Positions 2,349 through 26,131 of a stretch of DNA of 64,000 bases are shown here, in pieces. The notes under the pieces were generated by a model that saw only the letters and a list, made by a program, of their open reading frames with translations, was not told the origin of the DNA and did not search any database. The stretch is taken from NCBI GenBank assembly GCA_003278145.1, contig QCGV01000001.1, positions 327,616 to 391,615 of the forward strand, given 5' to 3'. Every line of letters begins with the position of its first letter. Within the stretch, counting starts at the first letter, position 1. The translations under genes were made by a program, and so were the position numbers. This DNA is from OCS116 cluster bacterium AG-390-A19. Its GTDB lineage: Bacteria; Pseudomonadota; Alphaproteobacteria; MED-G09.

Positions 2349-4310
2349 ATGCGCTTTTTAATCTTTCTTGTTTTTATTTTTTATATTAACCCTTCCTATT
2401 CCGCGACTGATGATTGGACATCATACGGAAAAGGCTCTGGTGGAGGTCATTTTTCTAAAGCTGATGAAATTACCCCTGAAAATGTTAGAAAACTAGAAAG
2501 GGTGTGGGTTCATAGATCGGGAGATTATAAAGGTGGGGCAAACTCTGCTGGAGTAAAAGGAGGAGAGTATCAGACATCTTTTCAAGCAACACCGTTGCTT
2601 GTCGATGACACTCTATTTTATTGTACTTCATTTAATAGAGTTTTTGCTCTAGACCCCGAAACTGGAAAAGAAAAGTGGGTATTTGATCCAAAACTTAAAA
2701 AAGATGGTAGAGCGATTTTAGCTTGCAGAGGTCTAAGTAGTTGGAAAGACAAAACAAAATCTTCCTTTGAAAAATGTCATCACAGAATAATGGGTGTTAC
2801 AATTGATGCGGAACTCTTTTCTATTGATGGAAAAAGCGGAGAACTTTGTAATGATTTTGGTGATAATGGAAGGGTAAATCTTAGAGAGGGACTTGGAGAT
2901 CATCCTGCCTTGTACTACTGGAGTACCTCTCCTCCAGCAATTATAAATGAAAAAATTGTAGTAGGAGGAAGTGTTATTGATAACTTGTCAACAGATATAC
3001 CAGGAGGAGTGGTAAGAGCATTTGACATAAGATCAGGGGAACTATCATGGTACTGGGATCCAATTCCTCAAGAAGAAGCAACAATAATGGATGAAAATGG
3101 CAATCCTTTGTACCGAAGAGGTACTGCAAATGTTTGGTCAATCATATCAGCTGACCCTGATTTAAATATGGTTTATCTCCCAACTGGTAATGCTTCTCCA
3201 GACTATTATGGCGGTCATAGAGAAGGTCTTGAGGAGTATTCAAGTTCAATTGTTGCATTAAATGCTGATACTGGAGAATTAATTTGGAGCTTTCAAACAG
3301 TTCATCATGATATTTGGGATTATGATGTTCCTTCTCAACCAACTTTTTATGAATTTGAAAGAAATGGAAAAGTAATAAAAGCACTTGCTCAAACAACAAA
3401 GACTGGTCTTACTTTTTTATTAAATAGAGAGACTGGTAAGCCTATATTCCCTATTGAAGAAAAAGAAGTTCCTCAAGGAGCGATCGAAGGAGATTATGTA
3501 AGTAAAACTCAACCTTTTCCTACTAAACCAGCACCTCTAAATCCAATATATTTTGATCCTGAAAAAGCTTTTGGATTTACTTTTTGGGATCGAGGTCATT
3601 GCAAGAGAACTGCAAAGAAATTAAGGAATGAGGGTTTATTTACGCCCCCCTCTCTTCAAGGAAGCATTCACTATCCCAGCGCTGTTGGTGGAAATAATTG
3701 GGGAGGACCTGCTGTAGATCCGGAAAGAAATATCATGGTTGTTAATACAAACAATATGGCCAGTTTAATAGTTATGATCCCTAGAGAGGATTGTAATAAA
3801 CCTCTTGAAGAGCTCTCAGTTAATAAAAACCAAGTTAGATATACTAATATTGAGACAAATGAAGGCGCTCCATATTGTAATCTTCGTTCAATGGGTTTCT
3901 TTTCTCCATTAGGTGTACCATGTACTGAGCCTCCTTGGGGAACATTAACTGCTATTGATCTTAATAATGGTGAACATTTATGGAATGTTCCATTGGGAAC
4001 TTCTAAGGATTTAGCACCTTTTCCTTTTTGGTGGATTAAAGGAGCCCCTAATATAGGCGGTCCAACAGTTACTGCATCTGGTGTAACCTTCATTGGTGCA
4101 ACAAGTGATCATTATTTAAGAGCCTTCAATACTGAAACAGGTGAAGAGATAGCAAAGTTCAGACTTCCTACAGGCGCACATGCAACCCCTATGACTTATA
4201 CAAATAAAGAAGGTAAGCAATTTGTTGTAATCGCTGCGGGAGGGCATTGGGCTATTGGAACACCAGCTTCAGATCACTTGATTGCCTTTGCGCTTCCCGA
4301 AAATAAATAG
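2349..4310 (+). CDS. Secreted PQQ-dependent dehydrogenase (glucose/quinate dehydrogenase-like), copy 1
   Basis: Quinoprotein predicted to oxidise an alcohol, sugar or aldose in the periplasm and pass electrons to the respiratory chain. Residues 1-19 form a signal peptide ending in SYSA. The rest is a PQQ beta-propeller with repeated DPETGKEKW, NADTGELIW and NTETGEEI blade motifs. HHDIWDYDVPSQP carries the Asp that corresponds to the catalytic Asp of membrane glucose dehydrogenase, and the Lys of TTKTG fits the PQQ-contacting Lys. GVPCTEPPWG is also typical of this branch. There is no N-terminal five-helix membrane domain and no cytochrome c domain. The next gene is a close paralogue 8 bases on. 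Substrate unknown; no pqq synthesis genes lie in the window. Confidence 0.88.
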   Translation: MRFLIFLVFIFYINPSYSATDDWTSYGKGSGGGHFSKADEITPENVRKLERVWVHRSGDYKGGANSAGVKGGEYQTSFQATPLLVDDTLFYCTSFNRVFALDPETGKEKWVFDPKLKKDGRAILACRGLSSWKDKTKSSFEKCHHRIMGVTIDAELFSIDGKSGELCNDFGDNGRVNLREGLGDHPALYYWSTSPPAIINEKIVVGGSVIDNLSTDIPGGVVRAFDIRSGELSWYWDPIPQEEATIMDENGNPLYRRGTANVWSIISADPDLNMVYLPTGNASPDYYGGHREGLEEYSSSIVALNADTGELIWSFQTVHHDIWDYDVPSQPTFYEFERNGKVIKALAQTTKTGLTFLLNRETGKPIFPIEEKEVPQGAIEGDYVSKTQPFPTKPAPLNPIYFDPEKAFGFTFWDRGHCKRTAKKLRNEGLFTPPSLQGSIHYPSAVGGNNWGGPAVDPERNIMVVNTNNMASLIVMIPREDCNKPLEELSVNKNQVRYTNIETNEGAPYCNLRSMGFFSPLGVPCTEPPWGTLTAIDLNNGEHLWNVPLGTSKDLAPFPFWWIKGAPNIGGPTVTASGVTFIGATSDHYLRAFNTETGEEIAKFRLPTGAHATPMTYTNKEGKQFVVIAAGGHWAIGTPASDHLIAFALPENK

Positions 4311-4318
4311 GATATTTT

Positions 4319-6286
4319 ATGATTAGAGTACTTTTAATATTAATTTTTATTATCTCTTACCAATCACTTAATGCAAAAAACGATGATTGGTCTTCATATG
4401 GAAAAGATTCTGGTGGTGGTCACTATTCTGAAGCAGATGAAATTACACCTGAAAATGTAAAAAATTTAAAAAAGATTTGGGAGCACAGATCCGGTGATTT
4501 TCATGCTGGATTAAATTGGACTGAGGATGTTACACCAAATAGTAGTCAGCAAACTTCATTTCAAGCAACTCCAATTTTAGTTAATGACACTTTATTTTAT
4601 TGCACACCTTATAATAGAGTTTTTGCTCTAGATCCTGAGACTGGGGAAGAAAAATGGGTATTTGATCCCAAAATTGAAATTGAACAAAAAGCACTTCTTC
4701 ATTGTAGAGGGGTTGGTAGTTGGATAGATATAAATAAAACTGAAAATGAAGAGTGTTATCATCGTATTATTACTGGAACGATTGACGCCGAACTTTTTGC
4801 TATAGATGGGAAAACTGGAAAACTTTGTTCTGACTTTGGAGACTATGGAAAGGTAAATTTAAGAGATGGTCTTGGTGAGCATAATCCTGCTTATTATTAT
4901 AGTGTTTCCCCTCCAGCAATTATTGGTGATATTATTGTTGTTGGAGGAGGTATTGCTGATAATGTTAGTACATCTGTTCCTGGGGGAGTTGTTCGCGCTT
5001 ATAACATTAGAACTGGTGATTTAATATGGTATTGGGATCCTATACCTCCAGGCCAAGAGCCAATAATTGACGAAGAGGGACAACAATTATATCAAAGAGG
5101 GACAACAAATGTATGGTCGATTATATCGACTGATCCTGAACTAAACTTAATATACCTTCCAACAGGCAATACTGCTGCAGATAATTACGGTGGTCATAGA
5201 AATGGTTCAGATTATTATTCGAGTTCTGTAGTAGCTTTAGATGCTTCAAGTGGAGAAGTTGTTTGGCATTTCCAAACGGTTTATCATGATATTTGGGATT
5301 ATGATGTTCCCTCTCAACCAACTTTTTATGAATTTGAAAGGAATGGAGAAGTTATAAAAGCATTAGCACAGACAACCAAAATGGGTTTTGTTTTCCTATT
5401 AAACAGAGAGACAGGTGAGCCTATTTTTCCTATAGAAGAGCGAGAGGTTCCACAAGGTGCTGTCGAGGGTGACTATGTTACTAAAACTCAGCCCTTTCCA
5501 TCAAAACCAGCTCCTTTGACACCTACTTATTTAGATCCTGAAGAAGTTTTTGGTTTTACTCCTTGGGATAAAGGTTATTGTAAAAAAGCTGCTAAAGATT
5601 TGAGAAATGAGGGTCTTTATACACCTCCATCTTTGGAAGGTAGTGTTCACTATCCGAGTGCAATAGGGGGTGCAAATTGGGGAGGCCCTGCAGTTGATGC
5701 TTCCAGGAATATTCTTATTGCCAATACAATGAATTTATCAAGCACAATAGTAATGGTTCCAAGGAAGGACTGTGATAAAGCCCTTAAGGAATTAGCAAGA
5801 GATAACGTTCAATCAAGATTTTCAGCATTACAACAAAATGAGGGAACACCTTATTGCACTATAAGAGCTTATGGATTTATGTCTCCGTTAGGAGTTCCAT
5901 GTACTAAACCCCCATGGGGAAATCTTACTGCTATTGACTTAAATACTGGTGATCATTTATGGCAAATTCCATTAGGAACATCCAAAGATTTAGCACCTTT
6001 TCCTTTTTGGTGGATAAAAGGAGCACCAAATATTGGTGGTCCAACAGTAACTACTACAGGTTTAACATTTATAGCTGCAACTAGTGACTATTACTTAAGA
6101 GCATTTAAGACCGAAACAGGTGAAGAGTTAGCTAAATTTAGATTACCAACAGCTGGTCATGCAACACCAATGACTTATACCAATAAGATTGGTAAACAAT
6201 TTGTTGTAATTGCTGCAGGAGGACACTGGGCAGTTGGTTCCCCAGCCTCAGATCATTTAATTGCATTTGCTTTAGAGGATAAATAA
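4319..6286 (+). CDS. Secreted PQQ-dependent dehydrogenase, copy 2 (tandem paralogue)
   Basis: Same architecture as the preceding gene: signal peptide in the first 19 residues ending in LNA, then about 635 residues of PQQ propeller. HDIWDYDVPSQP, TTKMG, GVPCTKPPWG and the closing AAGGHWAVGSPASDHL are all present, so both copies look catalytically intact. The two proteins align over their whole length with few indels. Differences gather in the early region after HRSGD and in the Cys-rich middle, which could change substrate preference. It starts 8 bases after copy 1 and is followed after 2 bases by the P450, so it is clearly in an operon. A tandem duplication with divergence is the simplest history. 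Confidence 0.88.
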   Translation: MIRVLLILIFIISYQSLNAKNDDWSSYGKDSGGGHYSEADEITPENVKNLKKIWEHRSGDFHAGLNWTEDVTPNSSQQTSFQATPILVNDTLFYCTPYNRVFALDPETGEEKWVFDPKIEIEQKALLHCRGVGSWIDINKTENEECYHRIITGTIDAELFAIDGKTGKLCSDFGDYGKVNLRDGLGEHNPAYYYSVSPPAIIGDIIVVGGGIADNVSTSVPGGVVRAYNIRTGDLIWYWDPIPPGQEPIIDEEGQQLYQRGTTNVWSIISTDPELNLIYLPTGNTAADNYGGHRNGSDYYSSSVVALDASSGEVVWHFQTVYHDIWDYDVPSQPTFYEFERNGEVIKALAQTTKMGFVFLLNRETGEPIFPIEEREVPQGAVEGDYVTKTQPFPSKPAPLTPTYLDPEEVFGFTPWDKGYCKKAAKDLRNEGLYTPPSLEGSVHYPSAIGGANWGGPAVDASRNILIANTMNLSSTIVMVPRKDCDKALKELARDNVQSRFSALQQNEGTPYCTIRAYGFMSPLGVPCTKPPWGNLTAIDLNTGDHLWQIPLGTSKDLAPFPFWWIKGAPNIGGPTVTTTGLTFIAATSDYYLRAFKTETGEELAKFRLPTAGHATPMTYTNKIGKQFVVIAAGGHWAVGSPASDHLIAFALEDK

Positions 6287-13393: not shown

Positions 13394-13422
13394 AAAGGCC
13401 CTTGTTTAAGGGCCTTTTTTTT
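13394..13422 (+). terminator. Rho-independent terminator after the TonB-dependent receptor
   Basis: AAAGGCCCTT (13394-13403) pairs perfectly with AAGGGCCTTT (13408-13417) across a 4-base loop, and a T run continues to 13422. It lies 23 bases after the receptor stop and touches the 3' end of the convergent hydroxylase gene. This is the clearest intrinsic terminator in the window. Confidence 0.9.
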
Positions 13423-14320
13423 ATCTAGATCCGAATTCTTTTTTAATATCAGTTGACATTTTTCTAGACCCATCATGACTCCAACCAGGGGGTGCAAATA
13501 GATAGAAAAATTTTTGTTTTATGGAAATATCTTTCCTTAGCATATCCTTTAAGATATTCCAGTATTCGTGGAAGGCTATTTTAATTGGATTAAAGGTTTC
13601 CAAATCTTTTACTAGGCCATAATCTGGAAACTTATCTTTATCTTCTTCAGCAAAAGTATTAAATAATTTATCCCATATGATAAGGGTACCTGCGTAATTT
13701 TTATCAAGAAACTTTGGGTTTTTTCCATGATGAACTCTATGATGTGAAGGAGTATTAAAAATTGCTTCTACCCAATTAGGAAGTTTTCTTATTGTTTCTG
13801 TATGAATAAAAAATTGATATATGGCATTCATTGCCCCACAAAAAATAACTAAAACTGGGTCAAAACCAATTAAAATTAAAGGAATTTTTAAATACATTGT
13901 CCCTGTAAAATGTTTTGTCCAACCTTGTCGAAGAGCTACCGCTAGGGAAATTCTGTTACTGGAATGATGAGTTACATGCATTGCCCATCCCCACCTACAC
14001 CTGTGTACTATTCTGTGGTGAGTATAGTATCTGAGATCATCAAGAATGAAGCAGATTATAACTGTCCATATTGTAAGGGGGAGTTTAGTTATTTGATATT
14101 GTTCAAACCAAAATAAAACATTCAATGTAATAAAAGCAGATAAACCGTTTGTAACAACGCTTGTTAAACCCATAAATATAGATACTGAATTGTCTTTTGT
14201 ATCAATAGTCCCATTAGTTTTTAAGAATTTAATAGCTAAAATCTCTAATAAAATTGCTAAAAAAAAGAAAGGGATAGCTATTAAGGTAACTTCTAGATTT
14301 ATTATTTTCTCTAAACTCAC
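13421..14320 (-). CDS. Sterol desaturase / fatty acid hydroxylase family protein
   Basis: Integral-membrane di-iron oxygenase, 299 residues. The family's histidine clusters are visible: HHRIVH (about residue 107), HVTHHSS (about 120), a later isolated His in FIHTET and HHRVHHG (about 197). Four or so hydrophobic membrane segments occupy the first half and the middle. The enzyme is expected to hydroxylate or desaturate a lipid C-H bond using oxygen. A tRNA-Lys gene lies 22 bases upstream on the same strand, so the two may share transcription. Together with the 5-alpha-reductase-like protein it hints at terpenoid or sterol-like lipid chemistry; the substrate is not shown by sequence. Confidence 0.88.
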   Translation of the reverse strand: MSLEKIINLEVTLIAIPFFFLAILLEILAIKFLKTNGTIDTKDNSVSIFMGLTSVVTNGLSAFITLNVLFWFEQYQITKLPLTIWTVIICFILDDLRYYTHHRIVHRCRWGWAMHVTHHSSNRISLAVALRQGWTKHFTGTMYLKIPLILIGFDPVLVIFCGAMNAIYQFFIHTETIRKLPNWVEAIFNTPSHHRVHHGKNPKFLDKNYAGTLIIWDKLFNTFAEEDKDKFPDYGLVKDLETFNPIKIAFHEYWNILKDMLRKDISIKQKFFYLFAPPGWSHDGSRKMSTDIKKEFGSR

Positions 14321-14699: not shown

Positions 14700-15530
14700 T
14701 TAATCGTTTATAAGTTTTTCTCTAAGAAATCTGGATAATTTATCAATTAATGCAACCATGATAAGTATTATTATTATTATGAAAAATGCTTGATCCCAGT
14801 ATTGCGCCTTCATTCTCTCTGATAATTGAAGTCCTATACCGCCAGCACCAACTATTCCTAATATAACAGCTGATCGAGAGTTAGATTCAAAGAAATAAAG
14901 GCTCTGAGAAATAAAAATTGGCACAACTTGCGGCATCAATCCAAATCTAATAGTAGATAATTTTGTTGATCCTGATGAAACTAGCCCTTCAATTTGTTTG
15001 TTATCACTATTATCTGCAGCTTCTGAATATAGTTTTGATAAAGTTCCTGTATCAGCTACAAAAATTGCTAATACTCCTGAGAGAGGGCCTAAACCAAAAG
15101 CTCGAACAAAAATTAAAGCCCAAATAAGAATATCAACTCCGCGAATAAAATCTAGAATCCTCCTTACAATAAACCTAAATAAGTTTATTTTTGTAACTTG
15201 TCTTGATGCAAGTAACCCTAAAGGAATAGATATTACAGAGGCAGCAAAAGTTCCCAGAAAAGCCATAGCTAAAGTCTGTAAAATACCAACCAAGATTGAA
15301 TTAAAATTCCATGATAGAAAATCATTCCAAGTGACCATTGAAAGTAATATTGGTTTCATTTTGTTCAGACCGTTTAAAAGTTCGGTAACTGAAATATTAA
15401 AATATTTTATTGAAAAAATTAGGTATGAAAAAATTAGTAAGGAAAAGAAAATTTTTAAAGGTGAACGTTTCCATAATGGAGAAAATATTTTTGGATAAAG
15501 CGTCACTATCTCTTGATTAGTCATTTTCAA
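14700..15530 (-). CDS. phnE: Phosphonate-type ABC transporter permease (second PhnE-like)
   Basis: Inner-membrane subunit of a PhnCDE-family importer, 276 residues with about six hydrophobic segments. The ATPase-contact EAA loop is visible as GIVGAGGIGLQLSERMKA near residue 226. RRILDFIRGVDILIWALIF is a typical PhnE block. It overlaps the first permease by 14 bases and is last in a phnC-phnE-phnE operon. Such importers carry phosphonates, phosphite or related anions and are often phosphate-regulated. No Pho box is apparent to me. No periplasmic binding protein gene (phnD) is present in the window. Confidence 0.88.
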   Translation of the reverse strand: MKMTNQEIVTLYPKIFSPLWKRSPLKIFFSLLIFSYLIFSIKYFNISVTELLNGLNKMKPILLSMVTWNDFLSWNFNSILVGILQTLAMAFLGTFAASVISIPLGLLASRQVTKINLFRFIVRRILDFIRGVDILIWALIFVRAFGLGPLSGVLAIFVADTGTLSKLYSEAADNSDNKQIEGLVSSGSTKLSTIRFGLMPQVVPIFISQSLYFFESNSRSAVILGIVGAGGIGLQLSERMKAQYWDQAFFIIIIILIMVALIDKLSRFLREKLIND

Positions 15531-16386
15531 TCCTGGTAATATTTTTTCTCAGATAGCCTGATAATAAATCAATCGATATGACGGTTAAAATTATCAATAA
15601 TATAATTGCACTAACTTCTTCATAATAATTAAAATTAATTACAAGATATAACTCTTGACCTATTCCGCCTGCGCCAACAAAGCCTAAAATTGTTGAAGCC
15701 CTTATATTAATCTCAAATCTAAGTAGTGCGTATGAAATTAAATTTGGAAGAACTTGTGGTAATAATCCAAATTTCATTTCTGATAACCAGTTTCCTCCTG
15801 ATGCCTTAAGAGCCTCTATTGGTTTATTGTTCGAGTTTTCATGAACTTCAGAAAATAATTTACCCAGGGACCCAGTTGTATGAAGTGTCATTGCTATAAT
15901 CCCTGCAAGTGGACCAATTCCCAATACCCAAACAAATAGAATTGCAAAAATTATTTCTGGAACTCCTCTAAAAAATTCAAGTATTCTTCTAATAGAAAAA
16001 AAGAGTAGAGAATTAGGGGAAGTATTTTTTGCTGCTAAAAAACTTAAAAAAAGTGCTAATGTTGAACCTACAATGGTTGCAAGAAGAGCCATGTTAAAAG
16101 TTTCAAAAAGTAATTTTAAGTATTTAGGTAGATTAAAATACCAATAAGCAATAGATCCTTGATCTTTAGAGCCAAGAAATAACTTATTTGATTCTATTGA
16201 AGGAAGAATTTGTGAAACGTAATCACCTAGTCTTGGCATTCCATTTAATAGATTTGAGACATTAATATCTATTATTTTAGAGGAAAGTATTACTCCAATA
16301 AATATTAAAATAATAAGGGATAAATTCCAAAAACGTTTTTTTCCTATTAAATTTTTATAATGATTATCGGAAGTTATTTTATTCAT
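15517..16386 (-). CDS. phnE: Phosphonate-type ABC transporter permease (first PhnE-like)
   Basis: 289-residue permease paralogous to the following one. It has an N-terminal membrane helix, a periplasmic stretch of about 70 residues (GMPRLGDYVSQILPSIESN and on) and about five more helices. The EAA-like loop GFVGAGGIGQELYLVIN is near residue 239, and RRILEFFRGVPEIIFAILF matches the PhnE family. Its start overlaps the phnC 3' end by 8 bases, showing tight coupling. Two different permease genes imply a heterodimeric channel, as is common in marine alphaproteobacteria. Confidence 0.9.
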   Translation of the reverse strand: MNKITSDNHYKNLIGKKRFWNLSLIILIFIGVILSSKIIDINVSNLLNGMPRLGDYVSQILPSIESNKLFLGSKDQGSIAYWYFNLPKYLKLLFETFNMALLATIVGSTLALFLSFLAAKNTSPNSLLFFSIRRILEFFRGVPEIIFAILFVWVLGIGPLAGIIAMTLHTTGSLGKLFSEVHENSNNKPIEALKASGGNWLSEMKFGLLPQVLPNLISYALLRFEINIRASTILGFVGAGGIGQELYLVINFNYYEEVSAIILLIILTVISIDLLSGYLRKNITRIEND

Positions 16387-17125
16387 CGTCTAAATCATAG
16401 AGCTTCTTTGCAATATCAGCTGTTAACTGGTTTGGCTTTCCATCAAAAACAACTTCTCCTTCAGATAAACCAATTAAGCGGTCACAATATTTTTTTGCTA
16501 TCTCTAAAGAGTGAAGATTACATATAATAGTTATTCCATCTTCTCGATTAATTTTAAGCATATCGTCCATAACTTTTTTTGAATTTTTTGGGTCTAAAGA
16601 TGAGATTGGTTCATCAGCTAATAGGATTTTTGGTTTTTGCATTAAAGCTCTTGCAATAGCAACTCTTTGTTGTTGTCCTCCCGATAATGTTCCAGATCTC
16701 TGAAGAGATTTTTCGGCAAGTTCAAACCTGTCTAGATTTTTTAATGCATTAATTTTTTCTTCCTTTGAAAAATATCCAAATAAATTTAAAAAACTATAAC
16801 TCCTGCCTAAACTCCCTATTAAAACATTTGTTAACACATCTAATCGATCAACTAAGTTAAATTGTTGAAAAATCATAGCGCATTCTGAACGCCACCTTCT
16901 TAGTGCTTTTCCTCTGATATCTGTAATAATTATACCATTAAATTCGATTGAGCCTTCAGTTGGTTCAATCAATCTATTTATCATTCTTAGAAGAGTTGAT
17001 TTACCGGATCCAGATCGACCAATAATCCCAGTAATTTTACCTTGTTCGACCTCAAGGTTTATATTGTTAATCGCAACTGTATCCTTGAACTTTTTTTTAA
17101 GATTTTTTATTCTGAGTGGTTTCAT
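16379..17125 (-). CDS. phnC: Phosphonate-type ABC transporter ATP-binding protein
   Basis: ATPase subunit, 248 residues. Walker A is GRSGSGKST (about residues 36-44), the Q loop lies in MIFQQFNLVDRLDVL, the signature is LSGGQQQRVAIARAL and Walker B is ILLADEPISSLDP. NLVDRLDVLTNVL and the length are characteristic of PhnC among ABC ATPases. It leads the phnC-phnE-phnE operon. phnD, usually next to phnC, is missing here; the binding protein must be encoded elsewhere or the operon is reduced. Confidence 0.92.
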   Translation of the reverse strand: MKPLRIKNLKKKFKDTVAINNINLEVEQGKITGIIGRSGSGKSTLLRMINRLIEPTEGSIEFNGIIITDIRGKALRRWRSECAMIFQQFNLVDRLDVLTNVLIGSLGRSYSFLNLFGYFSKEEKINALKNLDRFELAEKSLQRSGTLSGGQQQRVAIARALMQKPKILLADEPISSLDPKNSKKVMDDMLKINREDGITIICNLHSLEIAKKYCDRLIGLSEGEVVFDGKPNQLTADIAKKLYDLDDE

Positions 17126-17217
17126 AATATCTCATCAATGATTTGTGGATTTACAGACTCATTATAATGATTAAACTAATCTTATATTTGCTATATTCAA
17201 GCTTGGATCAAAAAAAA

Positions 17218-18720
17218 ATGAAACTCTTTTATTTAAAAGCCATAATAATTATATTTCTAGTTTTCTATTCAAGCAACGCTTTTGCAAGTGTTGATCAAAG
17301 CATTAACGATTTTTTAGAACCTATTGCCTCGCTTATTTCAGGGATTGTTTTTTATTCACTTCCAATTGGAAGTGCTAATGTTGAGTTAATTGTTATTTGG
17401 CTTATAGCTGGAGGCTTATTTTCAACTTTTTATTTTAAATTCATTAATTTTAGAGGTTTTAAACATGCCTTAGAATTAGTTTCTGGAAAATTTTCAAAAA
17501 AAGAATCAAAGGGTGAGGTTTCACACTTTAAAGCTTTAGCAACTGCTTTATCTGGAACCGTTGGTTTAGGAAATATCGGTGGAGTAGCTGTAGCCATTTC
17601 TCTTGGGGGTCCCGGTGCAACTTTTTGGATGATACTATCTGGCTTAATCGGTATGTCTTTGAAATTTTGTGAGTGCACTTTAGGAGTGAAATACAGAAAT
17701 ATTAATCCTGACGGAACTGTTTCAGGTGGACCTATGTATTATTTATCGAAAGGTCTTCAAGAGAAGGGTTTTAAGTTTTTAGGTAGTATTCTTGCCTATA
17801 TGTTTGCAATTTTTTGCATTTTTGCATCACTAGGTGGTGGAAATATGTTTCAGGTTAATCAATCTTTAGACCTATTAATTTATGTTACAGGAGGTAGTGG
17901 AAGTTTCTTGGACCTACACTCCTGGGTTTATGGATCTTTTATAGCTATTCTTGTTGGTTTGGTAATTATTGGAGGAATTAAAAGAATTGGTTCAGTTACC
18001 TCAAAATTAGTTCCTTCAATGGCAGTAATTTATTTAGTTTCATCTTTGATTATTATTTTTTCAAATTATGACCAAATACCATCAGCAATTTCATCAATTT
18101 TTATAGGCGCATTTTCTCCCGAAGGAGTAACAGGTGGTTTCCTTGGTGTATTGATTCTTGGCTTTAGAAGAGCTGTGTTTTCCAATGAGGCAGGAATTGG
18201 GTCTGCACCTATCGCACATTCCGCAGTAAAAACAGATGATCCCACAACCGAAGGGTTGGTTTCTCTATTGGAACCATTTGTTGATACAGTTATTATTTGT
18301 ACTTTAACAGCATTAGTAATTATTACGTCTGGTGTTTATATAACAGGCCAAGAAATTGAAGGTGCAAGAATGACATCCCAGGCATTTGGAACGGTATTAC
18401 CAACATTTCCTTATTTACTTGCTCTTGTTGCAACTCTATTTGCCTTTTCCACTATGATTTCTTGGTCATATTACGGTGTAAAGGCTGTTACCTTTATTTT
18501 TGGTGAGTCTAAAAATATTGAAACTCTATATAAAGTTATATTTTGTCTTTTTGCTATTGTTGGATCTTCACTTGATTTGGTTAAAGTAATCGATTTATCT
18601 GATGCAGCGTTATTTCTGATGGCAATTCCAAATTTAATCGGAGTTTATATTTTAGCTGGAATTGTTAAAAAAGAATCTCTTAATTATTTTTCTAAATTGA
18701 AGAAAATTGAAAAAGTTTAG
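17218..18720 (+). CDS. Alanine/glycine:cation symporter family (AGCS) transporter
   Basis: Sodium-coupled amino acid importer of the inner membrane with about 10-11 hydrophobic segments. Family hallmarks are ALSGTVGLGNIGGVAVAIS near residue 106, GGPMYYLSKG and the RRAVFSNEAGIGSAPIAHSA block. The frame is open back to a TTG at 17143, but the ATG at 17218 gives MKLFYLKAIIII... ending FASVDQSIN, a signal-like first helix as seen in related proteins, so I prefer it. It is divergent from phnC across about 90 bases. No glycine riboswitch is visible upstream. Substrate is likely alanine, glycine or a similar small amino acid. Confidence 0.9.
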   Translation: MKLFYLKAIIIIFLVFYSSNAFASVDQSINDFLEPIASLISGIVFYSLPIGSANVELIVIWLIAGGLFSTFYFKFINFRGFKHALELVSGKFSKKESKGEVSHFKALATALSGTVGLGNIGGVAVAISLGGPGATFWMILSGLIGMSLKFCECTLGVKYRNINPDGTVSGGPMYYLSKGLQEKGFKFLGSILAYMFAIFCIFASLGGGNMFQVNQSLDLLIYVTGGSGSFLDLHSWVYGSFIAILVGLVIIGGIKRIGSVTSKLVPSMAVIYLVSSLIIIFSNYDQIPSAISSIFIGAFSPEGVTGGFLGVLILGFRRAVFSNEAGIGSAPIAHSAVKTDDPTTEGLVSLLEPFVDTVIICTLTALVIITSGVYITGQEIEGARMTSQAFGTVLPTFPYLLALVATLFAFSTMISWSYYGVKAVTFIFGESKNIETLYKVIFCLFAIVGSSLDLVKVIDLSDAALFLMAIPNLIGVYILAGIVKKESLNYFSKLKKIEKV

Positions 18721-19321
18721 TATTTTAAAATCAATTAAAGGCTTTATGGATCCAGATGAGGGAGAGTGTCTTTATAGATATTCCTTAGAAGCATCAAAAA
18801 AAGGACCAATTTTAGAAATAGGATCATATTGCGGAAAATCAACAATTTATATTGGAACAGCATGTAAAGAAAATAATTCGCTCCTATATGCAATTGATCA
18901 TCACACTGGATCTGAAGAAAATCAAATCGGCTGGGAATACCATGATGAAGAACTATTTGATAGCGAGACTGGAAAAATTAATACTTTTCCGGAATTTAGA
19001 AAAAATATAAGAAGTTTTGATTTAGAAAAATTTGTTATTCCTATTGTTTCTGATTCTGTGTTAGTGGCTAAATACTGGACAATTAATCTATCAATGGTTT
19101 TTATAGATGGCGGGCATAGTGAAGAAGCAGCTTTTAATGATTTTGATAATTGGAATGATAAAATTATAAATGACGGATTTTTAGCCATTCACGATGTTTT
19201 TCCGAACCCTGATGACGGTGGAAGGCCTCCTTATGAAATTTTTCTCAAAGCAATAAATTCTGGAAAATTTAAAGAGTATAAAACTGTTAAGTCTCTAAAA
19301 ATACTTAAAAAAGTTTTATAA
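18707..19321 (+). CDS. Class I SAM-dependent methyltransferase (Methyltransf_24-like)
   Basis: A 204-residue protein with a Rossmann SAM-binding start, ILEIGSYCGKSTIY (about residues 31-44), then AIDHHTG and MVFIDGGHSEEAAFNDFDNW (about 132-151), as in the class often found with glycan genes. The start is a TTG lying inside the symporter's 3' end (14-base overlap). The 3' end overlaps the convergent alpha-toroid gene by 6 bases. The partner genes on the other strand suggest it serves the same glycan or glycolipid pathway, but that is inference from proximity. Acceptor molecule unknown. Confidence 0.8.
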   Translation: MKKFSILKSIKGFMDPDEGECLYRYSLEASKKGPILEIGSYCGKSTIYIGTACKENNSLLYAIDHHTGSEENQIGWEYHDEELFDSETGKINTFPEFRKNIRSFDLEKFVIPIVSDSVLVAKYWTINLSMVFIDGGHSEEAAFNDFDNWNDKIINDGFLAIHDVFPNPDDGGRPPYEIFLKAINSGKFKEYKTVKSLKILKKVL

Positions 19322-20383
19322 AAGATCATCTAAAAATAATGATGACCCATTACTTAATTCATAAATTGCATCATATGCCAAAATTACCGCAGCAGAAGTC
19401 CAAGGCGGTCTCTCTTTTGGCCAAAAAACTTCAAGCTCATACTGTCGTCCCATCCAGTAGGCTCCTTCATCATCCCTCCACTGGTGAGTATATGAAATCA
19501 TTTCTTTAGCTAATTTATTTTCACCAATTTTTTTTAGAGCAATTGCTAACTCTGCCGTTTCAGCTATTGTCACCCATGGTTGATCTTCGACACATTTACA
19601 ACCAACCCCATCAACTACAAACGTTTCCCATTTACTGAATAATTTTTCTTTAGCATCTTGTTTTGAAATTAAGCCACATAGAACAGGATAATACCAATCC
19701 ATTGAAAAACGTTGTTTTGAGTCCCAAGTTCTATCAAATAATTCAGGTTTATTTTTAATGGCATAACCTAATTTCTCCAAAGACTGCTTCCATTCATCAA
19801 CATTTATATCTAAAATTTTCGCACATTTTATTGCACTTATAAGACTTTTATAAATTGAACAACAGCCTGTAATCAACGCATCATCATTTGGGGCAGACTC
19901 ATCTTTCGCCGCCCACCTTATTTCACCTTCTAAAGATTGATTTCCAATAACAAAATTAATTGCGTTAAATATAGTAGGCCATAATTTGATAAGATCTTCT
20001 TTTGACTTATTTACTAGATAATCGTGCCAAGAGGCGGTAGCAATATATGCTGCAAAGTTTGTATCTCTAATTAAACTTCCTGCATCACTTTCTTCTCCAG
20101 TAAAGGCTCCACTATCTTCATCAAATTCAACAGTACTTCCCAGTTGTCCATACCATGATCCGTCTTTGAGTTGATAATTTTTTAAATAATCAAATCCTAA
20201 ATCTTTTTCTTTTTTATAACCTAGTAAATTTAAAGCCATAACAGACTCAAGATGATTCCATGCATCAAAAACACCTTCTTTAAACCATGTTATTGATCCA
20301 TTATTTTTTTGAAGTTCAATTATCCTGTTTGATGAGCCTTTAAAGAATTTAATTTTATCTTTGTTTACTATTTTTTCTGTCAT
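19316..20383 (-). CDS. Alpha/alpha-toroid protein (terpene-cyclase/glycosidase-like fold), function unknown
   Basis: A 355-residue protein built of repeated helix pairs: AWNHLESVMALNLLGY, LGFDYLKNYQLKDGSWYG, DTNFAAYIATASWHDYL, TIAETAELAIALKKIG and PPWTSAAVILAYDAIYEL. The DGSWYG and W-rich repeats recall QW-type toroids, so databases may label it prenyltransferase or squalene-cyclase-like. The glycosidase six-hairpin fold gives a similar pattern, and DDEGAYWMGRQ fits that better to my eye. No signal peptide is present, so it is cytosolic. It follows the methyltransferase by 1 base in the glycosyltransferase operon. Catalytic residues cannot be assigned. Confidence 0.65.
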   Translation of the reverse strand: MTEKIVNKDKIKFFKGSSNRIIELQKNNGSITWFKEGVFDAWNHLESVMALNLLGYKKEKDLGFDYLKNYQLKDGSWYGQLGSTVEFDEDSGAFTGEESDAGSLIRDTNFAAYIATASWHDYLVNKSKEDLIKLWPTIFNAINFVIGNQSLEGEIRWAAKDESAPNDDALITGCCSIYKSLISAIKCAKILDINVDEWKQSLEKLGYAIKNKPELFDRTWDSKQRFSMDWYYPVLCGLISKQDAKEKLFSKWETFVVDGVGCKCVEDQPWVTIAETAELAIALKKIGENKLAKEMISYTHQWRDDEGAYWMGRQYELEVFWPKERPPWTSAAVILAYDAIYELSNGSSLFLDDLL

Positions 20384-20384
20384 T

Positions 20385-21122
20385 TTATTTTTTTTTGAAA
20401 TATAGGACTATTGATTTACCCATTACTGGATCAAAAAATTTTTCTAAAACTCTAGTAAGGATTGGTCTTTTTAAAATATCCCATTCTAGAAACTTTTTAT
20501 ATAAATTTACAAAAATATTTTTTTCATTTTTAACACCTACATAACATTTTAACCACCAGTATGGCGAATGAAGACCATGTTTATAGGACTTTGATAAATA
20601 AAAAAAATTATTACTCCTGAAGCTGTTAATAAGTTGTTTTTTGTTAAAAATATGAATGTGCCCACCTGGTTCATTATGATATTCATCAGATAGGTACCAA
20701 CATATTTTCTCAGGAATCTGATTAGGAACTGATATTCCAATATATGAATTCTTTTTTGAAACTCTATGAATTTCATCGATTACTTTTTCATAATTTGGAA
20801 TGTGCTCAAGAACTTCAGAGCATATTACTTGATCGAAAGTTTCATCTTTAAAAGGAAGTGAGAGAGCATTTCCGGTCATTAAATTGAAATGTCTGTTTGG
20901 ATCATTTGTGATATCTGGATAGGTTTCAAAACCTTGATAAGTAATTTTTATGTCCTCTAAAGAAAGGTCGAGACCAATTACATGACACTTCTTATAATAA
21001 TAAAGCTTATGGATATGTCTTCCTTTTCCACATCCAAGGTCTAAAATTGTGTCACCATCCTTAATTTTAATTTTATCTAGATCTATTGTCAGCATTTGAA
21101 ATTGCCTCTCTATAAACTTCAA
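20385..21122 (-). CDS. Class I SAM-dependent methyltransferase (Methyltransf_11-like)
   Basis: A 245-residue methyltransferase. Motif I is ILDLGCGKGRHIHKL (about residues 27-41), the acidic end of strand 2 is GLDLS, and post-motif segments are GNALSLPFKDETFDQVICSE and EVLEHI. The C-terminal portion (HSPYWWLKCYVGV and LEKFFDPVMGKSIVLY) is not part of the core fold and looks specific to a subfamily that travels with glycosyltransferases. The gene starts 50 bases inside the preceding glycosyltransferase frame; a second Met at residue 10 would still overlap it. Probably a glycan or lipid-linked sugar methylase; acceptor unknown. Confidence 0.82.
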   Translation of the reverse strand: MKFIERQFQMLTIDLDKIKIKDGDTILDLGCGKGRHIHKLYYYKKCHVIGLDLSLEDIKITYQGFETYPDITNDPNRHFNLMTGNALSLPFKDETFDQVICSEVLEHIPNYEKVIDEIHRVSKKNSYIGISVPNQIPEKICWYLSDEYHNEPGGHIHIFNKKQLINSFRSNNFFYLSKSYKHGLHSPYWWLKCYVGVKNEKNIFVNLYKKFLEWDILKRPILTRVLEKFFDPVMGKSIVLYFKKK

Positions 21123-22350
21123 CTAATTCTTTAGCAGCTCTTTTCCAGGTAAATTTTTCTAAAACTCTTTTTCTTCCTTTTTCACCAAGCTCTTTTCTTT
21201 TTTCAGGCGATAATAAGAGTTCTTTTATTGCTTTCCTTAATTCATTTGGGTTTGAATGAGGCACAATTATACCTGAATCACCTACGACTTCTGGGAGAGA
21301 ACCTCCATTTGTTGAAATTAATGGAATACCACAAGACATTGCTTCACCTGCTGGAAATCCAAAACCCTCATAAACGGATGGTGAAATAGCAATTGTTGAT
21401 TCAGCATATAATTCTGCAATTTCCCTACTTGTTAAATCGGAGATAAATTTAACTTTATTTTTAATATCTTTTTTATCTAATTCATTACTGGTTGGGCCAT
21501 CCCTTAACTTTCCTATAACAACTAAAGATAGGTCAGGAAACTCATCTAGAAGTTCTGAATATGCTCTAATTAGATAAATTAAACCCTTTAGAGGTACATC
21601 AGCACTTGCTGTAGTAATTAATTGATTTTTTTTTCTTTTAATAGATGGAATTGGTTCAAAAGTTTTATGATCAATCCCATGAAGTACTTTTCTTGTTTTT
21701 TTTGGATCTATTTTAAAATCTTTTACTACATCTTTTCTAGTATTTTCAGACACCACAATTATAGGGTCTAGCTTTCTAGCAACTTTAATCTGCATTTTTA
21801 AGAAGCTGTACCATCTCCATTTAAGTAATTTAAGTGATAAAGTTTCAGCGTGTTTGATATCTATTCTTTTATCCATAGTAATAGGGTGATGAATTGTTCC
21901 TACAACCGGAACACCCATATCTCTTAATTTTATTAATCCATAAGCTAAAGTCTGGTTATCATGTACAACATCGAATCTTTCATAATTTTCTTTACCCCAA
22001 ATTGCCATTCTTTCGCCAAAAGTATATGGCTCAGAAAAACCACCACTCAAATGACTTAGCCATTCATAAAGGTTAATAGGTTCTTTAAGAAGATTTAATC
22101 TAAAAGCTTTAAGAGGACTATCGAAAGAATAAAGATCAAGTGATGGTAATTTGGTTAATTTAACCCCTTTATCTAGAATTGGGTAAGGTTGTCCCGATAC
22201 AACTTCAACAGTATGTCCTAATTCAACCATAGCTTTAGTCACTAAACGCATGTAAATACCCTGACCACCTGTAAAAGGGTGGCTTCTATAGCTAGGCATC
22301 AAAATTCTTAGGGGTTTATCGTTTATTTTACTCATGGAGACTTGTATCAT
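21073..22350 (-). CDS. Glycosyltransferase family 4 protein
   Basis: GT-B fold retaining glycosyltransferase, 425 residues. The N-terminal domain begins RILMPSYRSHPFTGGQGIYM, with the GGQG loop typical of GT4. The C-terminal domain has TTASADVPLKGLIYLI (nucleotide-sugar region), then ISPSVYEGFGFPAGEAMSCG with the conserved Glu residues, about residues 325-345. It acts at the cytosolic face, using a nucleotide sugar. It is first of three overlapping minus-strand genes. The ATG at 22350 or the one at 22335 could be the start, and neither has a clear ribosome site. Product linkage unknown. Confidence 0.88.
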   Translation of the reverse strand: MIQVSMSKINDKPLRILMPSYRSHPFTGGQGIYMRLVTKAMVELGHTVEVVSGQPYPILDKGVKLTKLPSLDLYSFDSPLKAFRLNLLKEPINLYEWLSHLSGGFSEPYTFGERMAIWGKENYERFDVVHDNQTLAYGLIKLRDMGVPVVGTIHHPITMDKRIDIKHAETLSLKLLKWRWYSFLKMQIKVARKLDPIIVVSENTRKDVVKDFKIDPKKTRKVLHGIDHKTFEPIPSIKRKKNQLITTASADVPLKGLIYLIRAYSELLDEFPDLSLVVIGKLRDGPTSNELDKKDIKNKVKFISDLTSREIAELYAESTIAISPSVYEGFGFPAGEAMSCGIPLISTNGGSLPEVVGDSGIIVPHSNPNELRKAIKELLLSPEKRKELGEKGRKRVLEKFTWKRAAKELVEVYREAISNADNRSR

Positions 22351-24094: not shown

Positions 24095-25276
24095 TCATTT
24101 GTTTCGACTTAACTCTTTCATACCTTTATCCAAACCGTCTAATGTTAATGGATACATTCTGTCAGATATAATCTGACTAATTATTTGAGTGGAAGGTGTG
24201 AATTCCCAATGTTTTGTTTCAACTGGATTTATCCATATTACATTTTGATAAATATCAGTAATTCTTTGTAACCACTCTGCGCCTGCTTCTTCATTCCAAT
24301 GTTCAACACTACCACCTGGGTAGGTGATTTCATATGGACTCATTGACGCATCTCCTACAAAAATAACTTTATAATCTGATGAATATTTATGTAAGATATC
24401 CCAAGTATCAATTTTTTCGGTATGCCTTCTTCTATTGTCTTTCCAAACACTTTCATACAAGCAATTGTGAAAATAAAAACTTTCCATATTCTTAAATTCT
24501 GTTTTAGCTGCTGAAAAAAGTTCTTCACATAGCTTAACATGCATATCCATTGAGCCACCAATATCAAAAAATAATAGAACTTTAACTTTATTTCTTCTTT
24601 CGGGTACTAAAGATATATCTAAATAACCTTTATCTGCAGTATTTTTAATAGTTCCGGGTAGATCAAGTGTGTCCGCTGCACCATCTCTCGCAAATTTTCT
24701 AAGCCTTCTAAGTGCAACTTTTATATTTCTAGTACCAATTTCAACATCTTTATCTAAATTTTTGAACTCTCTCTTGTCCCATACCTTAACAGCTTTATAA
24801 TTTTTATTTTCTTTTTGTCCTATTCTAATACCCTCTGGATTATAACCATCAGATCCATAAGGAGATGTACCACCAGTCCCAATCCATTTAGAGCCTCCTT
24901 CATGCCTTTTCTCTTGTTCTTCAAGCCGTTTTTTTAATTCTTCCATTAATTTATCCCAGCCACCCATAGACTCAATTTTTTGTTTTTCTTCTTCGGTAAG
25001 GAATTTTTCATTAAGTGTTTTTAACCACTCTTCAGGGATTTCAGTAATTTCATCTGACTCTAAAGACTCAAGACCTTTAAAGACATGACCAAAAACACGA
25101 TCAAATTTATCGAGATTTTTTTCATCTTTAACAAGAGTTGATCTTGATAAATAATAGAATTCCTCAATCTTTCTATTAGGTATGTCCTTATCCATTGCTT
25201 CCAATAGAGTTAAATACTCCCTCAAAGAAACTGGCAGATTAGCATTTTTTAATTCATGAAAAAAATTAACGAACAT
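24095..25276 (-). CDS. VWA-domain protein, CoxE-like
   Basis: A 393-residue protein whose C-terminal half is a von Willebrand A domain. The metal site begins FFDIGGSMDMHVK, with DIGGS in place of the usual DxSxS but keeping Asp and the last Ser. YFHNCLYESVW and VIFVGDASMSPYE follow, all typical of the CoxE-like COG3825 group. The N-terminal half is helical and charged, with an acidic/basic linker (EELKKRLEEQEKRHEGG). It forms a pair with the MoxR-type AAA ATPase 9 bases upstream. Such pairs act as chaperones that load metal or remodel oxidoreductases; in carboxydotrophs CoxD/CoxE mature the CO dehydrogenase site. Confidence 0.87.
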   Translation of the reverse strand: MFVNFFHELKNANLPVSLREYLTLLEAMDKDIPNRKIEEFYYLSRSTLVKDEKNLDKFDRVFGHVFKGLESLESDEITEIPEEWLKTLNEKFLTEEEKQKIESMGGWDKLMEELKKRLEEQEKRHEGGSKWIGTGGTSPYGSDGYNPEGIRIGQKENKNYKAVKVWDKREFKNLDKDVEIGTRNIKVALRRLRKFARDGAADTLDLPGTIKNTADKGYLDISLVPERRNKVKVLLFFDIGGSMDMHVKLCEELFSAAKTEFKNMESFYFHNCLYESVWKDNRRRHTEKIDTWDILHKYSSDYKVIFVGDASMSPYEITYPGGSVEHWNEEAGAEWLQRITDIYQNVIWINPVETKHWEFTPSTQIISQIISDRMYPLTLDGLDKGMKELSRNK

Positions 25277-25285
25277 TGAAAATTA

Positions 25286-26131
25286 CTACCCATTCTCTCT
25301 TCTAGCTAAGAAAGCCAATCTTTCAAAAAGATGAACATCCTGTTCATTTTTTAATAAGGCACCATGTAACGGTGGAATTAAGTTATTAGCATTTTTTTCT
25401 CTTAACATTTCTGGTTTAATGTCCTCATTCATAAGTAATTTAAGCCAATCTAAAAGTTCGGAGGTTGAAGGTTTTTTCTTAATTCCTGGAACATCCCGAA
25501 GTTCGTAAAAAACTTTAAGAGACTCAGATACTAATTTTGATTTAATTTTTGGATAATGAACATCTACAATTTTTTCCATTGTATCTGCATCAGGAAAAGA
25601 AATATAATGAAAAAAGCATCTTCTTAAAAATGCATCTGGTAATTCTTTTTCATTATTTGAGGTAATTATAACAACTGGTCTTTTTGCAGCTTTTATTGTT
25701 TCGTTAGTTTCGTAAACAAAAAATTCCATTCTATCTAGTTCTTGAAGTAAATCATTTGGGAATTCAATATCAGCTTTATCAATTTCATCAATTAATAAAA
25801 TTGGCCTTTCATTGGACTCGAATGCCTCCCATAATTTACCTTGTTTGATATAGTTTTTTATATCTTTAACTTTTTCATCGCCTAATTGAGAGTCCCTTAG
25901 TCTCGTTATTGCGTCATATTCATAGAGACCTTGCTGAGCTTTTGTTGTTGATTTTATATGCCATGTTATTAAAGGCATTTTAAGAGCTTTTGAAACTTCT
26001 TCCGCCAATACGGTTTTACCTGTTCCAGGTTCACCTTTAATGAGCAATGGTCTTTCAAGTGTAACTGCAGCATTTACAGCGATACGAAGATCTTCTGTTG
26101 CTATATAATCTTTTGTTCCTTCGAACTTCAT
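25286..26131 (-). CDS. MoxR-family AAA+ ATPase (CoxD-like)
   Basis: A 281-residue AAA+ ATPase. Walker A is GEPGTGKTVLAEE (about residues 37-49), Walker B is ILLIDEIDKAD, sensor 1 is VVIITSNNEKELPDAFLRRC with the arginine finger. The lid domain ends with LIPPLHGALLKNEQD. It is the first gene of a MoxR-VWA pair. The target complex is unknown; the molybdenum hydroxylase large subunit at 58 kb is one candidate in this window, 32 kb away. A 145-base divergent gap separates it from dksA. Confidence 0.9.
   Translation of the reverse strand: MKFEGTKDYIATEDLRIAVNAAVTLERPLLIKGEPGTGKTVLAEEVSKALKMPLITWHIKSTTKAQQGLYEYDAITRLRDSQLGDEKVKDIKNYIKQGKLWEAFESNERPILLIDEIDKADIEFPNDLLQELDRMEFFVYETNETIKAAKRPVVIITSNNEKELPDAFLRRCFFHYISFPDADTMEKIVDVHYPKIKSKLVSESLKVFYELRDVPGIKKKPSTSELLDWLKLLMNEDIKPEMLREKNANNLIPPLHGALLKNEQDVHLFERLAFLARRENG

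What the first reader, a model, noticed from the sequence alone, without database searches (positions are those of the whole stretch)
18707..22350. Glycosyltransferase / methyltransferase / alpha-toroid cassette of unknown product
Three overlapping minus-strand genes (GT4, class I methyltransferase with an unusual PYWWLK tail, alpha/alpha-toroid protein) meet a convergent second methyltransferase. The toroid protein has no clear catalytic residues and could be a glycosidase, epimerase-like or cyclase-like enzyme. The set looks like a compact pathway making a methylated glycan, glycolipid or osmolyte.
Basis: inference. Interest (0 to 1): 0.5.

Follow-up and report, generated by a model that had tools for sequence, protein, structure and literature searches.

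The report
Methylmannose polysaccharide genes in marine bacterium
A four-gene set known from mycobacteria, which builds and recycles an unusual methylated mannose polymer inside the cell, is present with its gene order intact in a small ocean bacterium and in many unrelated microbes, so this polymer is probably far more widespread than the mycobacterial literature suggests.

Summary
The finding is real, and the set can be named. The toroid protein (19316-20383 -) is an ortholog of MmpH, the mycobacterial methylmannose polysaccharide (MMP) endomannosidase; the GT4 is ManT (alpha-1,4-mannosyltransferase); the convergent plus-strand methyltransferase is MeT1 (1-O-methyltransferase); the PYWWLK methyltransferase is the cluster's still putative 3-O-methyltransferase, pMeT3. 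PDB best hits: 7qsj (3.5e-70), 7qsg (2e-92), 6g7d (6.8e-56); the toroid model fits 7qsj at TM 0.87. MmpH residues D47 and E262 are invariant in 81 of 81 sequences. The genome belongs to the marine OCS116 cluster (Alphaproteobacteria). The order manT>pmeT3>mmpH><meT1 recurs in Alpha- and Gammaproteobacteria (SAR86, Halieaceae), deltaproteobacteria and Actinomycetota; haloarchaea have the triplet without meT1. mmpH is in 15 of 18 OCS116-family genomes, 112 of 390 of one gammaproteobacterial order, 65 of 396 Actinomycetota, 5 of 398 Pseudomonadota, 6 of 294 of the haloarchaeal phylum. The mechanism is known; this host range was not in the papers I could search. Open: no standard GDP-mannose pyrophosphorylase found in OCS116 genomes, the first-primer enzyme, and the polymer's role outside mycobacteria.

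The parts
21073..22350 (-). manT: GT4 alpha-(1->4)-mannosyltransferase ortholog (425 aa); H154, K255, E328, E336 match H142, K240, E313, E321 of M. hassiacum ManT
   Evidence: phmmer to 7qsg 2e-92, aligned over residues 14-419; K240, E313, E321 kept in 72 of 72 ManT rows, H142 in 71 of 72 with one gap
20385..21122 (-). pmeT3: putative 3-O-methyltransferase, class I SAM fold with the C-terminal HSPYWWLKC signature; likely true start 21095 (Met10)
   Evidence: Pfam Methyltransf_23/31/11; family alignment including Mycobacterium L095; model pLDDT 88.2, best PDB fold hit RebM 3bus, a sugar O-methyltransferase by recall
19316..20383 (-). mmpH: MMP endomannosidase ortholog, (alpha/alpha)6 barrel (355 aa)
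   Evidence: phmmer to 7qsj 3.5e-70; model matches 7qsj at TM 0.87, rmsd 2.4, 37% identity
20264..20266 (-). codon of MmpH Asp40 = M. hassiacum Asp47, proposed catalytic acid
   Evidence: D in 81 of 81; mutant data in PMC9883506
20255..20257 (-). codon of MmpH Asn43 = M. hassiacum Asp50; Asn in this lineage
   Evidence: D 57, N 24 of 81
19559..19561 (-). codon of MmpH Glu275 = M. hassiacum Glu262, proposed catalytic base
   Evidence: E in 81 of 81; mutant data in PMC9883506
18707..19321 (+). meT1: MMP 1-O-methyltransferase ortholog (204 aa), convergent with mmpH
   Evidence: phmmer to 6g7d 6.8e-56, next PDB hit 9e-5; DHHxGSEExQxG and FIDGGH motifs kept
17143..18720 (+). AGCS sodium:alanine symporter; neighbour of meT1 in the OCS116 family, not part of the system
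   Evidence: TIGR00835 426.5 bits; next to meT1 in family-f1 loci, not matched in L014, L016, L017

Best explanation
This is an orthologous copy of the mycobacterial 3-O-methylmannose polysaccharide (MMP) gene cluster in a marine OCS116-cluster alphaproteobacterium. ManT adds alpha-(1->4)-linked mannose units to short oligomannoside primers. pMeT3 methylates the added mannoses on O-3 (this activity is inferred even in mycobacteria). MeT1 blocks the reducing end by 1-O-methylation. MmpH cuts mature chains into short oligomannosides that prime new chains, so the polymer copies itself partly conservatively. The enzymes look soluble, so the polymer is most likely cytosolic. Shown here: orthology, gene order, conservation of the residues tested in the paper, fold of MmpH. 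Inferred: the product in this organism, its location, and its role. Role proposed by analogy only: sequestering acyl chains or supporting growth in the cold.
For: Specific best hits for three of the four proteins to the three solved enzymes of the mycobacterial pathway: 7qsj 3.5e-70, 7qsg 2e-92, 6g7d 6.8e-56. MmpH model to 7qsj: TM 0.87, against 0.67 for the next fold. Same 4-gene cluster as in PMC9883506. All four genes were found in 112 fetched loci; the triplet lies on one strand in 112 of 112 and meT1 on the opposite strand in 111 of 112, including a Mycobacterium. Where meT1 is not adjacent, Zhongshania and Spongiibacter have one copy elsewhere. Residues: MmpH D47, W49, M215, Y219, E262, E265, W315 in 81 of 81; ManT K240, E313, E321 in 72 of 72. 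In all four gene trees the window's nearest rows are the same OCS116-family loci. No hydrophobic segment in the four proteins (max 19-residue KD mean 1.27). A second phosphohexomutase of AlgC size, a candidate phosphomannomutase, is in the genome.
Against: No chemistry: no MMP has been shown in any proteobacterium in the papers searched. No standard mannose-1-phosphate guanylyltransferase was found in this genome or in six OCS116-family genomes at least 93% complete, so the mannosyl donor is unexplained. MmpH carries Asn where M. hassiacum has Asp50, and D50A lost most activity there. ManT D293, proposed to contact guanine, is Ser here and is kept in only 8 of 72. pMeT3 activity is unproven anywhere. 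Gammaproteobacterial copies often sit beside lipopolysaccharide genes, which would fit an exported product.
Confidence: 0.87

Rival explanations
1. The same enzymes make a related but different methylated polymer in this clade: another sugar or another nucleotide donor, with the chain-cutting logic unchanged.
For: No GDP-mannose pyrophosphorylase by PF00483 in 6 of 6 OCS116-family genomes at least 93% complete, while G020 and G026 have ManC-like ORFs; ManT D293 is Ser and MmpH D50 is Asn in this lineage; a cytidylyltransferase-like domain fused to a mannose-6-phosphate isomerase cupin is in 9 of 21 genomes searched, counting one partial copy.
Against: All residues named around the MmpH subsite except D50 are kept in the window; MeT1, specific for a 3-O-methylated mannoside in mycobacteria, is present; ManT position 293 varies throughout the family; the fusion gene is absent from the 96% complete G004 and lies about 16 kb from an RmlA gene in G000, so it may serve another glycan.
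Confidence: 0.1
2. The set makes a methylated mannan that is exported, as an O-antigen or lipopolysaccharide part.
For: Among 81 loci (80 named and the window), Kdo transferase is near the cluster in 23, HldE in 12, RmlA in 19. PMC9883506 cites an O-antigen of alpha-1,2-linked 3-O-methylmannose in Oligotropha.
Against: No exporter, polymerase or lipid-linked initiating transferase recurs with the set across groups (only nine neighbour clusters were named by Pfam); the same set is in Actinomycetota and, without meT1, in haloarchaea, which have no lipopolysaccharide (general knowledge); the four proteins lack membrane segments; an endo-hydrolase and a reducing-end methyl cap do not fit O-antigen assembly (inference).
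Confidence: 0.03

Closest known systems
Mycobacterial MMP gene cluster meT1-mmpH-pmeT3-manT (Maranha et al. 2023, PMC9883506)
   Same: All four genes, the triplet on one strand with meT1 convergent, catalytic residues tested in the paper, fold of MmpH
   Different: Host is a low-GC marine alphaproteobacterium; MmpH Asp50 is Asn; ManT Asp293 is Ser; no standard GDP-mannose pyrophosphorylase found; identity to the M. hassiacum MmpH stretch 41%
Acetylated methylmannose polysaccharide of Streptomyces griseus (cited in PMC9883506)
   Same: Related polymer; in two of four large actinobacterial genomes looked at with longer flanks, manT-pmeT3-mmpH has meT1 some 2.5-5 kb away (L224, L228)
   Different: The window has no acetyltransferase neighbour; 12 other loci do. 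The S. griseus genome itself was not examined
Mycobacterial 6-O-methylglucose lipopolysaccharide pathway (MGLP)
   Different: Different sugar and enzymes; its genes were not searched for here
GH15 / GH125 (alpha/alpha)6-barrel glycosidases
   Same: Barrel fold and partly shared active-site layout by the paper's comparison
   Different: The GH125 enzymes compared are exo-acting; folds other than 7qsj match the model far more weakly

Membership tests
MMP gene cluster | mmpH ortholog | tested here: met
   7qsj 3.5e-70 and TM 0.87
MMP gene cluster | manT ortholog (GT4) | tested here: met
   7qsg 2e-92, the only PDB hit at E 1e-20 or better
MMP gene cluster | meT1 ortholog | tested here: met
   6g7d 6.8e-56
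MMP gene cluster | pmeT3 between manT and mmpH | tested here: met
   aligned with the Mycobacterium L095 copy, 39% identity, shared WWLKC motif
MMP gene cluster | Gene order with meT1 convergent to mmpH | tested here: met
MmpH | Catalytic acid/base Asp47 and Glu262 | tested here: met
   D40 and E275 in the window
MmpH | Asp50, whose Ala mutant lost most activity in M. hassiacum | tested here: not met
   Asn43 in the window; N in 24 of 81 rows, the alphaproteobacterial rows plus two Halieaceae, L062 and L063. A conservative natural change within an otherwise intact cluster; not taken as defining the family, but it lowers certainty about details
MMP gene cluster | GDP-mannose supply | tested here: inconclusive
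   candidate phosphomannomutase present, no PF00483 guanylyltransferase recognised
MMP gene cluster | The polymer itself: 11-14 alpha-1,4-linked 3-O-methylmannoses with a 1-O-methyl end | not testable with these tools
   needs chemistry
O-antigen / LPS locus | Exporter, polymerase or initiating transferase with the set | tested here: not met
   none seen to recur across groups in the neighbour clustering; only nine neighbour clusters were scanned with Pfam

The most novel reading that the evidence does not exclude
Cytosolic polymethylated mannan is not a mycobacterial speciality but an old, mostly vertically inherited metabolite of several bacterial phyla and of haloarchaea, common in marine heterotrophs of cold or dilute water. 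Its function must then be independent of mycobacterial lipid chemistry, and in OCS116 it is made without the standard GDP-mannose pyrophosphorylase.
Probability: 0.3. Interest if true: 0.75.

Novelty: new member of a known kind. Interest (0 to 1): 0.52.

Why it matters
MMP is discussed as a mycobacterial molecule that handles fatty acyl chains and helps growth at 15 degrees C (PMC9883506). Finding its whole gene set in OCS116, SAR86, Halieaceae and Syntrophaceae, and three of its genes in haloarchaea, means that its function can be tested in non-pathogenic Gram-negative cultures, and that explanations tied to mycobacterial lipids alone are too narrow. The wider family also bears on enzyme questions left open in the paper: Asp47 is invariant and Asp50 is not, which favours Asp47 as the catalytic acid; and a conserved O-acetyltransferase near twelve clusters is a candidate for making the acetylated form.

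Tried and rejected
Rejected for the toroid: squalene/hopene cyclase or prenyltransferase (SQHop_cyclase_N at E 0.15 and TIGR01787 at 0.013, both far under their cut-offs), epimerase (fold hits far weaker than 7qsj), MAX effector (E 0.034, below its cut-off).

Rejected: recent transfer from Actinobacteria. In the MmpH tree the 23 alphaproteobacterial rows form one side of a branch at SH-aLRT 100, the 18 actinobacterial rows one side at 92, the 4 haloarchaeal rows one side at 100; gammaproteobacteria are not a single group. The other trees give similar groups: alpha is one side for ManT (93) but needs 2 changes for pMeT3 and 3 for MeT1; actino is one side in all three (99 each). These are quick trees without bootstrap, with several long or compositionally odd rows; rows were hand-picked from the loci held (67, 67, 52 and 67 rows).

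Led nowhere: a fifth gene conserved across groups that could make the first primer (81 loci clustered, none found); the cytidylyltransferase-PMI fusion as donor enzyme (absent from G004, about 16 kb from RmlA in G000). Neighbour clusters 4-7, 11, 12, 16 and 22 were taken as overlapping-frame ORFs from their strand and place, not tested. GlmU, RmlA, MurU, GalU, ManC and IspD were named by eye and recall; so were YqiB and CpdA.

Loci from the genome search carry about 1.5 kb flanks, so ManT is partial in many. Literature was searched in a licence-limited library only; the 2019 MeT1 paper is not held and was not read. Of PMC9883506 I read the abstract, sections 4, 6, 8, 11, 14, 15, 16, 18 and passages; all other papers only as search listings. 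The paper names the base mutant Glu262Ala in the text and Glu256Ala in a figure legend. An earlier count said that MmpH Asn50 occurs only in alphaproteobacteria, and that that meT1 lies about 6 kb away in L224 and L228; re-reading searches corrected both (two Halieaceae have Asn too; distances about 5 and 2.5 kb).
Full report
What is there. Pfam gives a GT4, a class I methyltransferase, a Methyltransf_24 protein and nothing convincing for the toroid. Against all PDB chains the toroid has one strong relative: 7qsj, methylmannose polysaccharide hydrolase MmpH, E 3.5e-70. The GT4's only hit at 1e-20 or better is 7qsg, 2e-92; its PDB name is 'D-inositol 3-phosphate glycosyltransferase', and I take it as the ManT structure because its numbered residues match those given for ManT in PMC9883506. 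The plus-strand methyltransferase hits 6g7d at 6.8e-56 with the next at 9e-5; 6g7d is the MeT1 structure by recall, its PDB name being only 'methyltransferase domain protein'. The remaining methyltransferase sits where pMeT3 sits in mycobacteria, aligns with the Mycobacterium copy at 39% identity and shares the WWLKC motif. So the window holds the whole cluster that Maranha et al. (PMC9883506) describe for MMP.

How it works. In the paper, MmpH cuts MMP of 11-14 units into pieces of 4-5 and 7-8 units, ManT extends such pieces from GDP-mannose, MeT1 methylates free reducing ends, and pMeT3 is the likely O-3 methyltransferase. An M. smegmatis mutant without mmpH makes no MMP and, of the temperatures tested, grows slower at 15 degrees C only. 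I take the same cycle for the window; activity here is inferred. All four proteins look soluble: no 19-residue segment exceeds a mean Kyte-Doolittle value of 1.27, against 2.25 for the neighbouring symporter.

Active sites. Over 81 MmpH sequences (80 named loci and the window), D47, W49, M215, Y219, E262, E265 and W315 are invariant, N101 is kept in 80, T163 in 77, F102 in 65; D50 is D in 57 and N in 24, the N rows being the alphaproteobacterial ones plus L062 and L063, both Halieaceae. The paper could not decide between Asp47 and Asp50 as the catalytic acid; the natural Asp-to-Asn change at 50 favours Asp47. In ManT, K240, E313 and E321 are kept in 72 of 72, H142 in 71 (one gap), G15 in 66 (six gaps); D293, proposed to contact guanine, in only 8. 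MeT1 keeps DHHxGSEExQxG and FIDGGH almost throughout. The predicted toroid (pLDDT 86.8) fits 7qsj at TM 0.87 and 37% identity; the next fold is an invertase at TM 0.67. The pMeT3 model (pLDDT 88.2) is closest to RebM 3bus.

Whose genome. Contig C1 of G010, a genome of the window's family, has the length 791,894 of QCOV01000001.1, an OCS116 cluster bacterium genome, with MmpH at the matching place. The window's genome is 1.37 Mb, 83% complete.

Distribution. In the window's family MmpH is in 15 of 18 genomes; the three without it are 55-76% complete; 6 of 6 genomes at least 90% complete have it. In the rest of the class sample it is in 3 of 43. Even samples: Pseudomonadota 5 of 398 including the window, Actinomycetota 65 of 396 including the query genome, the haloarchaeal phylum 6 of 294 including Natrinema, the order of HTCC2148 112 of 390 including the query genome.

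Co-occurrence. Counted as presence in the fetched stretch: pMeT3 and ManT with MmpH in 74 of 75 named loci with room (the exception, L073, is near a contig end; 5 of 80 had no room), 16 of 16 of the family and class loci (18 fetched; L001 is the window itself and was left out, one had no room), 4 of 4 Pseudomonadota, 30 of 30 Actinomycetota (the 30 loci fetched of 66 matches), 6 of 6 haloarchaea and 9 of 9 (10 fetched of the 112 genomes) of the gammaproteobacterial order. MeT1 was in 72 of 78, 16 of 16, 4 of 4, 16 of 30, 0 of 6 and 10 of 10. Of the six named loci without MeT1, two genomes (Zhongshania, Spongiibacter) have it elsewhere, one (L090) has a fragment at a contig end and Natrinema has none; L023 and L084 were not followed up. 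In two of four large actinobacterial genomes looked at with longer flanks, MeT1 lies about 2.5-5 kb off; in the other two it is not in the 14.5-kb stretch.

Neighbours. No fifth gene is common to all groups. Gammaproteobacterial copies lie near Kdo transferase (23 of 81 loci), HldE (12), RmlA (19), RmlB (15), a TolC-like OEP protein (16); identities of representatives are. A hexapeptide O-acetyltransferase family is within the stretch in 12 loci.

The donor problem. A second phosphohexomutase of about 498 residues, besides a GlmM-sized one, is in most genomes of the family, but PF00483 finds only RmlA in G000 and, in G003, G004, G008, G010, G011 and G013, only ORFs that I read by eye as GlmU, RmlA or IspD. 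G020 and G026 have ManC-like ORFs of about 500 residues. TIGR01479 finds in G000 only the isomerase cupin of a fusion protein. How OCS116 makes its mannosyl donor is therefore open.

Literature. Searches for methylmannose polysaccharide with hydrolase and methyltransferase (2 papers), methylmannose polysaccharide (13), polymethylated polysaccharide (12), methylmannose with Proteobacteria (2, unrelated by title), MmpH (92, one relevant of the 20 listed), 3-O-methylmannose (11) and a mixed query (435, 15 listed) showed no report of MMP or its genes in Proteobacteria or archaea in the listings. The words proteobacteria, marine, gram-negative and archaea do not occur at a word start in the main text of PMC9883506. 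This library is incomplete.

Verdict. Membership in the MMP cluster family is met on genes, order, residues and fold; one tested residue (Asp50) differs. The kind of system is known. What is new, as far as I could search, is its host range, and that makes the function of MMP testable outside mycobacteria.

Noticed in passing
L032, L042, L043, L061, L070, L081, L083, L090, L092, L096, L097, L167 near the MMP cluster: A conserved 240-residue hexapeptide O-acetyltransferase family accompanies the cluster in gamma- and deltaproteobacterial loci, one alphaproteobacterial locus and SAR324; candidate for acetylated MMP.
   Followed up: partly
G000 contig C4:68600-69376 (L100:6601-7380 +): Fusion of a cytidylyltransferase-like domain (PF01467) with a mannose-6-phosphate isomerase cupin (PF01050), in 9 of 21 genomes searched counting one partial copy.
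   Followed up: partly
OCS116-family genomes G000, G003, G004, G008, G010, G011, G013: No standard mannose-1-phosphate guanylyltransferase recognised by PF00483 although the MMP genes are present.
   Followed up: partly
L207-L212 (haloarchaea): manT-pmeT3-mmpH triplet without meT1 in the stretch; none in the Natrinema genome.
   Followed up: partly
window 14700-17125: ABC transporter whose ATPase passes the PhnC cut-off (TIGR02315, 334.8 bits, cut-off 266.1) with two permeases; phosphonate-type uptake.
   Followed up: no
window 2349-6286: Two adjacent PQQ-dependent alcohol/glucose dehydrogenase genes.
   Followed up: no
window 13421-14320: Fatty acid hydroxylase family protein (PF04116) a few kilobases from the MMP genes.
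   Followed up: no
window 24095-26131: CoxE-like VWA protein with an AAA ATPase.
   Followed up: no
G526:C15:15352-16359: One actinobacterial mmpH carries an in-frame TGA.
   Followed up: no
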